A DNA stretch of 64,000 nt, from NCBI GenBank assembly GCA_019636535.1, contig JAHBXK010000004.1, forward strand, positions 1-64,000, read 5' to 3'. The notes beneath the pieces were generated by a model. That model was not told where the DNA came from. It saw only the letters and a list, made by a program, of their open reading frames with translations, and did no database searches. Source of the stretch: Phycisphaeraceae bacterium. GTDB lineage: Bacteria > Planctomycetota > Phycisphaerae > Phycisphaerales > UBA1924. Positions within the stretch are counted from its first letter, which is position 1. Each line of letters starts with the position of its first letter. The position numbers and the translations under genes are program-made. This document shows, piece after piece, positions 1 through 3,764 of the stretch.

Positions 1-488
1 GCGCTATACACGCATCACCACTCGCGCCCGCGCCTTCTAACGCGCCCGATCGCGCGCTCTTCAACCCCCTCCCAGATGGGAGCGAGGGTAGGGGGTGGGT
101 TCGCCTTTGCTTGCCTTGCCTTCGGTGGGACATGCGTCCCGCCTGTCCACTTCACCCACCGCTCCACCGCGCAGCGGCTCCAACATGCAGCCCGAGCATG
201 AGCGAGGGCGCGCGCCTTCAGCGCCCGTCCGCGTTCAACCACCCGAATCCAGTCGATTTCCCGAATACCGCTCGCCCGCTCTTCCGCATCCCCTTCTTGC
301 CCCGCCCGCCCGCAGGGCGGACGACCGTTGCCAGGGGCGCTGCGGGTTCGACGCGAGGCGAACACGCAAGCCCCTGGGAAGCAACCCACCACCCCACCTC
401 TTCTCCGTTCTTCTTCAGCAAGTGGGTTGCAGGGGGACTGCAAGTCCCCCTGCACACGGCGGGGTGGCACCGACCGTGACCTCTTCCC
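1..488. other. Repeat-rich stretch upstream of the RHS fragment
   Basis: I see no credible gene here. The open frames on both strands are Pro/Arg-rich and look like high-GC shadows. The stretch holds two dispersed repeats, annotated separately: a diverged hairpin repeat (326-453) and a short repeat (463-521) that ends 13 bases before RHS-like coding begins. This suggests that the missing 5' part of the RHS gene was replaced or deleted. Confidence 0.6.
326..453 (+). repeat. Dispersed hairpin repeat, diverged copy (family A)
   Basis: This copy matches, with divergence, the longer copies at 8848-9003 and 20940-21086. All have a 'gttgccaggg' start, a 'gcgaac...cccctggaa' middle, 'ttcttcagca' and a terminal hairpin. 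The hairpin arms here are GCAGGGGGACT (429-439) and AGTCCCCCTGC (443-453). The other copies have GCAGGGGGGCC and GGCCCCCCTGC. The last three base pairs therefore differ on both arms in a compensatory way, which implies that the stem is maintained. Confidence 0.7.
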
Positions 489-521
489 GTGCCACCGCAC
501 CGCGGCTTTGAGCGGTCGGTG
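463..521 (+). repeat. Short dispersed repeat R, copy 1
   Basis: This 59-base element shares GGTGGCACCGAC, CTTCCCGTGCCACCG and GCGGTCGGTG, in the same order, with bases 3601-3657. It has nested inverted repeats, GTGGCAC with GTGCCAC and CACCGACC with GGTCGGTG, so the RNA could fold. It abuts the truncated start of the RHS coding region. The second copy lies in the same orientation on the far side of the RHS and immunity genes. Confidence 0.7.
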
Positions 522-2324
522 CTCTTTCTGACCAGGCGGTTCGACGGCAACGCCAACTCGAACTACACCAACGGCGGGGGCGAGTTCGACGACGACCGCG
601 AGTTCAACGCGGCCAACGAACTGCTGGGCCGGAACTGGGACGGCACCATGGGATTCGAACGTACGCCCGTCTACGACGACGTGGGCAACCTGACGCACGA
701 CGACACGAACAACTCGGGGGACGGTCTGCGCTATCGCTACGACGTGATGGGCCGCCTGCTGAAGATCGAGACCAACGAGTCGAGCCCGACGATCCTGGCC
801 CAGTTCGAGTACGACGCGAACCACCAGCGGATCTCTTGGACCCACCCCGAGCGGAACGGCGGGAGCCCCGGCCTCCAAGCCACGCGGCACGAAGCCATCT
901 ACGACCACCGCTGGCGGATGATCGAGGTCCGCCGCGACGAGACGCTCGGCGGGCTGAACACGGGGGACGACGAATCGGAGCAGGGGCGGTTCGAGCGGTT
1001 CTACTACCACAACGCGGGGGTTGCCGGTTCCGGGGGTTCGGTGTACATTGACAGCGTGATCGCACGCGACCGGTCCATCGCCATCAAGCCGACCGTCTTG
1101 AACGAGCGGACGTACTACGCCCAGAACTGGCGGGGGGATGTCGTCCAACTCATCCGTCCCGGCGGGGCGCGTGCCGAGGCCAACCGCTACTCGGCCTACG
1201 GCCGACCGTACAACATCTTGGAGGCGGACGTCAACGCCGACGGCGTCGTTGACCTGGCCGACCTGCTCGACTTCCTCGACGATTGGAACACGCACTTCCC
1301 GTCGGCGGCGTACGTGGGGCTGGCGGATTACAACTTCGATGGGGCCGTGGACCTGTCCGACCTGCTCTCCTTCCAGGAGTACTGGAACCCGGACCTGGGC
1401 GTCGCCACCGGCCGGGACGTCCTCACAGCAGGGGAAACGAGGCTCCACGGCGGCAACCGCAAGGGCTACGCCGGGTACGAGCACGAGCCGTGGTGGTACG
1501 AGTTCCCGTTGAGCGGCACGCCGCCGACCGGCGTCCCCAACGCCGAGGCCGGGCCGCTCATGCAACTGGCACGGCACAGGTTCTACCGCGCCGACCTGGG
1601 GACGTGGACACGGAGAGATCCGTTGGGGTATGTGGATGGAATGGGGCTGTATGTTTATACTGTGGGCAATCCACTGATCAAACGCGATCCGCTCGGCATG
1701 ATGTCCCAATCGACTGATCCATGGCTAGAGAAAATACCCGAAGATCCTCAACAAGCGGTGCGATGCTGCGAGTCACTCAAGCGAGACTCGACGTTCGGTT
1801 CGAAGGTATGGGGTGCAACAACTTGTTGTTATGGCAAGCCCGTAATATGTATATTCGACAAGAACATTGATCGACAGTATGCCGATGAGGAATTCAGAAA
1901 AATCTTCAAATCATGTGTAATGCAACACGAGATACAGCACTACCATGATCTGATAGAACAAAATCGATGTGGACCAATTGTACCACGCAACGACCCCGGA
2001 TTTCAACACCCATTCGATATGAAAGATCCAAAAGATCGACGTGACTTTCACTGTTCGGAGTGTCGCGCATATCAGCAATCGTACTGGTGTCTTCAAGCGC
2101 AGAAACACAGGTGTGGACAGTGGCCGGCAGATAAGAGGCACACCGGTAAACGAACTCAATGTCAAAAAAACTACGACGATGCCATGGATGAAGTTATAAA
2201 AAAGAGGCTCGAGCACTGTGGCGCATGTACACCCGTGCCGATACGACCAGGTGATGCTTCGCCACTGCCACACTGGGACCCCATCATGCCATCACGAGAA
2301 CGTGTTTGTGACAGGGGTCTCTAG
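489..2324 (+). CDS. 5'-truncated RHS protein with internal dockerin repeats and C-terminal HExxH toxin-like domain
   Basis: This is the C-terminal part of an RHS/YD-repeat protein. From about residue 16 it reads as YD-type repeats (YDDVGNLTHDD, YRYDVMGRLLKIE, FEYDANHQRISW). It ends in the RHS core signature, FYRADLGTWTRRDPLGYVDG followed by NPLIKRDPLG (about residues 362-402). No typical N-terminal shell precedes it, so it is truncated or an orphan tip. Residues of about 242-303 are two dockerin-like calcium repeats ([17 protein letters not shown] and DYNFDGAVDLSDLLSF) inserted into the core. After DPLG the base composition turns AT-richer and the protein becomes Cys-rich. H480-E-I-Q-H484 is a zincin-like motif, and Glu524 in CSECRAYQ is a possible third ligand. 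In RHS systems this position holds a variable toxin; a metallopeptidase-type toxin is my inference. The first 15 residues, and so the start codon, are doubtful. Confidence 0.75.
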   Translation: MPPHRGFERSVLFLTRRFDGNANSNYTNGGGEFDDDREFNAANELLGRNWDGTMGFERTPVYDDVGNLTHDDTNNSGDGLRYRYDVMGRLLKIETNESSPTILAQFEYDANHQRISWTHPERNGGSPGLQATRHEAIYDHRWRMIEVRRDETLGGLNTGDDESEQGRFERFYYHNAGVAGSGGSVYIDSVIARDRSIAIKPTVLNERTYYAQNWRGDVVQLIRPGGARAEANRYSAYGRPYNILEADVNADGVVDLADLLDFLDDWNTHFPSAAYVGLADYNFDGAVDLSDLLSFQEYWNPDLGVATGRDVLTAGETRLHGGNRKGYAGYEHEPWWYEFPLSGTPPTGVPNAEAGPLMQLARHRFYRADLGTWTRRDPLGYVDGMGLYVYTVGNPLIKRDPLGMMSQSTDPWLEKIPEDPQQAVRCCESLKRDSTFGSKVWGATTCCYGKPVICIFDKNIDRQYADEEFRKIFKSCVMQHEIQHYHDLIEQNRCGPIVPRNDPGFQHPFDMKDPKDRRDFHCSECRAYQQSYWCLQAQKHRCGQWPADKRHTGKRTQCQKNYDDAMDEVIKKRLEHCGACTPVPIRPGDASPLPHWDPIMPSRERVCDRGL

Positions 2325-2371
2325 TCGTTTACTGATTTAGTTGATAACACTTTTGCATCCTGCATGACATT

Positions 2372-3109
2372 GTGTTGAAAAGCCAATACATCAATTCCAT
2401 CCAACTCGCAATCAGTCGCGTCATTATTAAGACCAGACGACAATTGATGATTGGTATGTGTTCGGCCTGTGCCGCAATAGTTATCACAGTGACATGCTGG
2501 TTGTTGCATTCTGCAGATTATGGTTCAGGGTTTGTTGAACAGAGGCACTCACTATACGTATTTCGAACTCCGATGCGACAACCCGCGGGGTCTCGATCGG
2601 TCATTATAACTAATAGAGTACATCGGTACACAAGCTCCGTGAATTCATCGAGTGAAACTTCATCGGTTAGCAGTTACAAATTTAGTCAAATGCCCACTAG
2701 AGAATTGCCGACGTGGATTCCCAAGACATTGCTAGGAACTGATCCGTTGTTACTGCATTCAGATTCGTTCGGATGGCCTATACCTTGGATTAGGAGAACC
2801 CTAGTCTATTGCTGGGCGAAGTCGGATTATATAGTAATAGAGGGCATGGAGTTGCGTTCCAATTCTGATCGCGCAATCGAAGAGAGGGTGATTGCTCCAA
2901 CAAAGATCATTTGGATTAACTTGTTCATCAATATTGTTATCTACCAGACTGCATTGTCTTGCCTAACATGTTTTGTATACGCCATTATCATTAGCTATAG
3001 AGCATCGGGCAATCGATGTTCGGAATGCGGTTACTCAATGGAAGATGCCACTGCCGCAGTTTGTCCGGAATGTGGGACCGAGTGGCTGCTACGAAGTGAA
3101 CTTGGCTGA
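2372..3109 (+). CDS. AT-rich membrane protein with C-terminal zinc ribbon; candidate immunity protein
   Basis: I do not recognise a named family. The gene starts 47 bases after the RHS stop on the same strand, with GTG at 2372 or ATG at 2447. The protein has an N-terminal transmembrane segment (about residues 26-46, IVITVTCWLL), an extracytoplasmic middle, a second hydrophobic segment (about 185-208, CLTCFVYAIIISY) and a two-CxxC zinc ribbon at the end (CSECG...CPECG). Its base composition is much more AT-rich than the surrounding chromosome and matches the RHS tip. Position and composition suggest that it arrived with the toxin tip and protects against it, which is inference. A standalone planctomycete membrane zinc-ribbon protein is the alternative. 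Confidence 0.65.
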   Translation: MLKSQYINSIQLAISRVIIKTRRQLMIGMCSACAAIVITVTCWLLHSADYGSGFVEQRHSLYVFRTPMRQPAGSRSVIITNRVHRYTSSVNSSSETSSVSSYKFSQMPTRELPTWIPKTLLGTDPLLLHSDSFGWPIPWIRRTLVYCWAKSDYIVIEGMELRSNSDRAIEERVIAPTKIIWINLFINIVIYQTALSCLTCFVYAIIISYRASGNRCSECGYSMEDATAAVCPECGTEWLLRSELG

Positions 3110-3600: not shown

Positions 3601-3657
3601 GGTGGCACCGACTGCGAACACTTCCCGTGCCACCGATCCGCGCTCTGGCGGTCGGTG
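3601..3657 (+). repeat. Short dispersed repeat R, copy 2
   Basis: This is a second copy of the element at 463-521, in the same orientation. It shares GGTGGCACCGAC, CTTCCCGTGCCACCG and GCGGTCGGTG. It abuts the truncated transposase end, as copy 1 abuts the truncated RHS gene. The two copies bracket the RHS tip and its AT-rich neighbour as direct repeats about 3.1 kb apart. Confidence 0.7.
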
Positions 3658-3764
3658 ATCTTGGCTTTCGTATCTCGCAGCGGAACGGCATCCCCCCGAT
3701 CCATTCCGCGACCCGACTGCGCCCGCGTATAGCCCTTTGATCGAATCGGCTCTAATCGGCTCCG

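What the first reader, a model, noticed from the sequence alone, without database searches (positions are those of the whole stretch)
1690..3109. Candidate new RHS tip toxin (Cys-rich HExxH) with membrane zinc-ribbon immunity gene
Seen: the RHS core DPLG (about 1684-1695) is followed by about 200 residues with twelve or more Cys and the motif H480-E-I-Q-H484, plus Glu524 as a possible third ligand. The base composition falls sharply at the DPLG boundary and stays low through the next gene (2372-3109), an orphan membrane protein with a C-terminal zinc ribbon, 47 bases downstream. Known: RHS proteins carry variable C-terminal toxins after DPxG, paired with an immunity gene directly downstream. 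Inferred: this is a zincin-type toxin/immunity pair. I cannot name either family.
Basis: partly seen in the sequence, partly recalled or inferred. Interest (0 to 1): 0.7.

Follow-up and report, generated by a model that had tools for sequence, protein, structure and literature searches.

The report
Cysteine-rich RHS toxin tip, membrane partner
A planctomycete genome carries a cut-and-paste toxin cassette whose cysteine-stapled tip looks like a zinc protease, followed by a zinc-ribbon membrane protein; the same pair occurs in nine genera of one bacterial family, so it is probably an undescribed toxin and its immunity gene.

Summary
An RHS core ends in DPLG (1686-1697) and runs into a low-GC, 208-residue tip with 15 Cys and HEIQH. 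A two-TM zinc-ribbon gene follows 47 nt downstream. The tip matches no Pfam or NCBIfam family. From 79 RHS tips read in related genomes I built a profile of the tip family. A search of 163 genomes of the same family with the tip alone found 13 loci; 12 have a two-TM zinc-ribbon gene immediately downstream. Such genes follow 23 of 79 RHS tips but only 4 of 190 other ORFs in the same loci (p = 3e-10). E481 is invariant, and E524 is lost only in the two members that lost both motif histidines, so H480, H484 and E524 behave as one site. AlphaFold2 gives a confident helical model (pLDDT 81), but no fold match. Full-length relatives are about 2,200-residue, apparently exported proteins; relatives also show tandem truncated RHS cassettes. 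I conclude: a polymorphic-toxin cassette, probably a silent orphan module here, with a zincin-like tip and a cognate membrane immunity protein. Toxicity and catalysis are untested. Several members lack intact HExxH. The membrane family mostly occurs without RHS.

The parts
533..1697 (+). truncated RHS core (YD repeats, dockerin-like insert at about 1223-1394, RHS-associated core ending in DPLG at 1686-1697)
   Evidence: ORF 489-2324
1698..2324 (+). variable C-terminal tip, 208 residues and stop, 15 Cys, HEIQH (1926-1940) and Glu524 (2058-2060); proposed zincin-like toxin domain. Model core about tip residues 16-180; residues 188-208 low confidence
2372..3109 (+). two-TM protein with C-terminal zinc ribbon (CSECGY..CPECG) and a GWP motif before TM2; proposed immunity protein
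463..526 (+). upstream copy of an interspersed repeat at the point where the RHS reading frame is cut
3601..3662 (+). downstream copy of the same repeat (84-86% identical), bracketing the cassette

Best explanation
This is an orphan cassette of a polymorphic RHS toxin system: a fragment of RHS core, a swappable C-terminal toxin tip, and a cognate immunity gene. The tip is a disulfide-stapled, zincin-like metallopeptidase domain in which H480 and H484, probably with Glu524, hold the metal and Glu481 is the general base. In full-length relatives the tip is carried by an apparently secreted protein of about 2,200 residues, and it would act outside the cytoplasm, where the disulfides can form. The downstream two-TM protein would sit in the producer's inner membrane, bind the tip through its extracytoplasmic GWP domain, and keep its zinc ribbon in the cytoplasm. 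In this genome the RHS part is cut at a repeat and has no signal peptide, so the cassette is probably a silent reserve that becomes active only if recombined onto a full-length RHS gene. Shown: the sequence features, the recurrent pairing, the truncated and tandem cassettes, and joint conservation of the motif residues. Inferred: metal binding, peptidase activity, toxicity, immunity, topology and silence.
For: A tip-only profile search of 163 genomes found 13 loci; 12 have a two-TM zinc-ribbon gene at the 3' end of the tip, L175 being the exception. Zinc-ribbon TM genes follow 23 of 79 RHS tips against 4 of 190 background ORFs, Fisher p = 3e-10; within the tip family 7 of 8 by the automatic rule, 8 of 8 once L115 (the same locus as L169) is read by eye. 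E481 is invariant in 13 of 13; E524 is lost only in the two rows that lost both H480 and H484. AlphaFold2 model: pLDDT 81, pTM 0.76, hairpin 39-44/47-52, HExxH on helix 64-87, E524 (tip E121) on helix 111-134. A similar-looking RHS tip (L113) hits Peptidase_M76 at 6e-12 with an HExxH...C.E..AY...C pattern. Full-length relatives of 2,191-2,357 aa carry one predicted hydrophobic segment, at the N-terminus and signal-peptide-like in L187, and L193 shows an intact RHS followed by a truncated RHS-tip-zinc-ribbon cassette and further RHS sequence. Own genome: two other Cys-rich RHS tips (C44, C37) also overlap a two-TM zinc-ribbon gene by 4 nt.
Against: Only 6 of the 13 aligned members have intact HExxH; three have HExxN, two CExxH and two neither histidine. 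No solved or viral structure matches the model, and the site geometry could not be measured. Most homologues of the membrane protein are not next to RHS tips. The correlation between tip and partner divergence (r = 0.52, p = 0.002) rests on one pair of loci and vanishes without it. No activity data exist for any member.
Confidence: 0.58

Rival explanations
1. Toxin/immunity pair, but the tip is not a working peptidase: the conserved Cys scaffold is a binding or pore-type domain in which the metal site is optional.
For: Seven of 13 members lack a complete HExxH while keeping the Cys scaffold and nearly always the partner gene. Foldseek found no zincin among its listed matches.
Against: E481 is kept in all members, and E524 disappears only with both histidines. 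HExxH is over-represented among RHS tips (7 against 0.33 expected). The window member keeps every motif residue.
Confidence: 0.25
2. Not a toxin: the secreted RHS proteins are surface adhesins or matrix proteins with variable disulfide-rich tips, and the downstream membrane protein is an anchor, receptor or maturation factor.
For: The proteins carry dockerin-like inserts. A related domain sits at the C-terminus of a non-RHS surface protein with Ig-like and carboxypeptidase-regulatory domains in another planctomycete family, followed there by a different gene (L182, L184). The zinc-ribbon membrane family is common away from RHS.
Against: Truncated and tandem RHS-tip-partner cassettes and a sharp GC break at DPxG fit polymorphic toxins (PMC3482391). 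A small downstream gene tends to follow each tip, and 56 of 79 tips have a TM protein next door.
Confidence: 0.17
3. Dead remnant: the cassette is a decaying fragment without a function of its own.
For: The RHS part is truncated at a repeat, at the start of a contig, with no signal peptide. A search of the own genome with an 800-residue N-terminal RHS part from another genus found nothing, though that search had no positive control.
Against: Both reading frames are intact, and all tip motif residues and all four zinc Cys are kept. Orphan modules are a normal part of RHS systems.
Confidence: 0.2

Closest known systems
Tox-MPTase1-5 (zincin-like RHS tip toxins, Zhang et al. 2012, PMC3482391)
   Same: HExxH tips at the C-terminus of RHS proteins, reported from bacteria including planctomycetes
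   Different: The window tip matches no Pfam family at E up to 5, has a conserved Cys scaffold, and has an identified partner gene; the paper's table lists no immunity protein for Tox-MPTase1-5
Peptidase_M76 (ATP23-type), PF09768
   Same: HExxH followed by C...C.E..A....C; another RHS tip of these genomes (L113) is a clear match (6e-12)
   Different: The window tip has no M76 match, and profile comparison with the L113 group is inconclusive (E 0.0033, probability 9.8%)
Two-TM immunity proteins Imm17 and Imm-CdiI (PMC3482391)
   Same: Small proteins with two TM helices acting beside a polymorphic toxin
   Different: The protein here adds a large extracytoplasmic segment with a GWP motif and a C-terminal zinc ribbon
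Orphan Rhs-CT/immunity cassettes
   Same: Core fragment, tip and partner gene, in tandem behind an intact RHS gene in a relative (L193)
   Different: Here the cassette stands alone between interspersed repeats in a fragmented assembly

Membership tests
RHS polymorphic toxin | RHS/YD repeats and an RHS-associated core ending in DPxG | tested here: met
   PF05593 and TIGR03696 above cut-off
RHS polymorphic toxin | conserved core followed by different C-terminal tips | tested here: met
   four cassettes in the own genome share the core (93-98% identity to the query core) but carry different tips
RHS polymorphic toxin | immunity gene directly downstream of the tip | tested here: inconclusive
   recurrent cognate gene shown; protection not tested
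RHS polymorphic toxin | toxic activity of the tip | not testable with these tools
   needs expression
Zincin metallopeptidase (gluzincin type) | HExxH plus a downstream Glu ligand | tested here: met
   H480, E481, H484, E524 present; joint conservation. Metal binding itself not tested
Zincin metallopeptidase (gluzincin type) | zincin fold with the ligands around one site | tested here: inconclusive
   confident model but no zincin among listed Foldseek matches; coordinates not available
Peptidase_M76 (PF09768) | match to the family profile | tested here: not met
   no match at E up to 5
Tox-MPTase families | match to a Pfam toxin-metallopeptidase profile | tested here: not met
   no Pfam match to the tip at E up to 5; whether all five families are in Pfam was not checked
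Imm17 / Imm-CdiI | two TM helices and little else; profile match | tested here: not met
   two TM segments present, but only weak zinc-ribbon matches in Pfam

The most novel reading that the evidence does not exclude
Planctomycetes of this family run a large RHS arsenal of disulfide-stapled tips that act outside the cytoplasm, and have turned a lineage-specific family of two-TM zinc-ribbon membrane proteins into its immunity pool; the tandem arrays of such genes without RHS neighbours (for example several in a row in G303) would be stored immunity.
Probability: 0.3. Interest if true: 0.65.

Novelty: new variant of a known kind. Interest (0 to 1): 0.5.

Why it matters
Interbacterial warfare in planctomycetes is little described; the one paper found in the held library that names RHS repeats, planctomycetes, toxin and immunity together is a general survey. 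This gives a testable pair: a Cys-stapled protease-like tip that no domain library searched here knows, and a new architecture for an immunity protein. If it holds, it would explain part of a very common but unexplained membrane protein family of these bacteria, and would offer a protease fitted to oxidising conditions.

Tried and rejected
Single-sequence searches of viral contigs, plasmids, PDB and 392 genomes of the phylum with the window tip gave only itself or chance-like hits. A narrower alignment found two places in 84,980 species: G589's contig, titled Phycisphaeraceae, and G133's, titled Planctomycetia. Fold searches of the tip model gave nothing below E 0.1. The membrane protein model is poor (pLDDT 61) and was not searched. 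Tip-partner co-divergence looked significant but depended on one pair of loci. A link of the window tip to M76 was considered and left open. PHROGs gave nothing for the tip. PADLOC was not run.

Full report
What is there. The window is the first 64 kb of contig C34 of a 3.56 Mb, 71-contig planctomycete genome; a genome of the same family, G589, matches a record titled Phycisphaeraceae bacterium. ORF 489-2324 encodes a truncated RHS protein. RHS-like sequence begins near 533, after about 500 nt of repeats that also occur elsewhere in the genome. A dockerin-like insert lies at residues 246-300, and the RHS-associated core ends at DPLG, 1686-1697. Base composition drops from about 0.67 to 0.45 GC at that point and stays low to about 3110. 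The tip has 208 residues, 15 Cys, HEIQH at 480-484 and Glu524. Gene 2372-3109 codes a 245-residue protein with two predicted TM segments and a C-terminal zinc ribbon.

Context. The same genome has three more cassettes with the same core (C37, C44, C54) and one different RHS gene (C43). The C44 and C37 tips are also Cys-rich and are followed, with a 4-nt overlap, by two-TM proteins with an N-terminal zinc ribbon; the two tips are related to each other (E 2e-11) but showed no match to the window tip. In this and related genomes I read 79 complete tips: median 7.4 Cys per 100 aa against 1.7 in other ORFs, a TM protein next door in 56, and a zinc-ribbon TM protein in 23, against 4 of 190 background ORFs.

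The tip family. Window-like tips share a scaffold of invariant Cys (tip positions 24, 43, 51, 73, 91, 131; 139 in 12 of 13). A profile from seven of them found 13 loci in 163 genomes of the family, in ten genera including the window's own. Twelve, in nine genera, have a two-TM zinc-ribbon gene immediately downstream; L175 has a different, large exported protein. The partners share G134 and P136 (the GWP motif) and the four zinc Cys, and little else. Outside RHS, a related domain ends a surface protein in another planctomycete family (L182, L184).

The motif. E481 is invariant. H480 is kept in 9 and H484 in 8 of 13 rows; both together in 6. E524 is kept in 11, and lost exactly in the two rows that lost both histidines. 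It also shows that the metal site is not needed in every member. The AlphaFold2 model (pLDDT 81, pTM 0.76, 13 sequences) has a beta hairpin, the HExxH helix 64-87, the E524 helix 111-134 and a long helix 146-177. Neither the PDB nor BFVD offers a match, and distances could not be measured. Another HExxH tip of these genomes, L113, is a clear Peptidase_M76 match (6e-12) with a similar layout, but the profile comparison with the window family is inconclusive.

How it probably works. Full-length relatives (L187-L190) are 2,191-2,357 residues long with one predicted hydrophobic segment; in L187 it is N-terminal and looks like a signal peptide. The tip would be exported, fold with disulfides, and act outside the cytoplasm of a target cell; the partner would protect the producer at its membrane. 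L193 shows an intact RHS gene, then a truncated cassette with tip and partner, then more RHS sequence, which fits the recombining standalone cassettes described for polymorphic toxin systems (PMC3482391). The window's cassette has the truncated form. Everything from metal binding to protection is inference.

Limits. The partner family is large: in 301 genomes of the order, 41 had matches at 1e-5, often several and often in tandem. Of the loci fetched in that search only the window and L024 had an RHS tip upstream; one further hit, in G095, lies beside a tip by its coordinates. So the family as a whole is not an immunity family; a subset is tied to RHS tips. ORF calls are my own, mechanical and without curation, and TM counts come from a simple hydropathy rule. 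The paper library holds open-licence papers only; seven literature searches found no report of this tip or pair.

Noticed in passing
window 463-526 and 3601-3662; also C37, C43, C35 and other contigs: An interspersed repeat (GGTGGCACCGACNG...CTTCCCGTGCCACC, partly palindromic) brackets the RHS cassette and occurs near other RHS cassettes of the genome.
   Followed up: partly
window 429-457: A palindromic GCAGGGGGACTGCAAGTCCCCCTGC element just upstream of the RHS ORF; similar pieces on C37, C44, C17 and C22.
   Followed up: partly
window 1223-1394: Dockerin-like duplicated segment inside the RHS core, also seen in several other RHS proteins of this order.
   Followed up: no
L049 3809-7270 (G303:C23), L051 2556-4943, L058, L059: Tandem arrays of several diverse two-TM zinc-ribbon genes without an RHS gene next to them; possible stored immunity genes or an unrelated expanded family.
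   Followed up: partly
L113 2-1486 (G589:C34): RHS protein with a clear Peptidase_M76 (ATP23-type) C-terminal tip, 6e-12, followed by a 103-residue protein with one hydrophobic segment.
   Followed up: partly
L044 3-1498 and L046 81-1825 (own genome): A second pair of Cys-rich tips, not matching the window tip, each overlapping a two-TM protein with an N-terminal zinc ribbon by 4 nt.
   Followed up: partly
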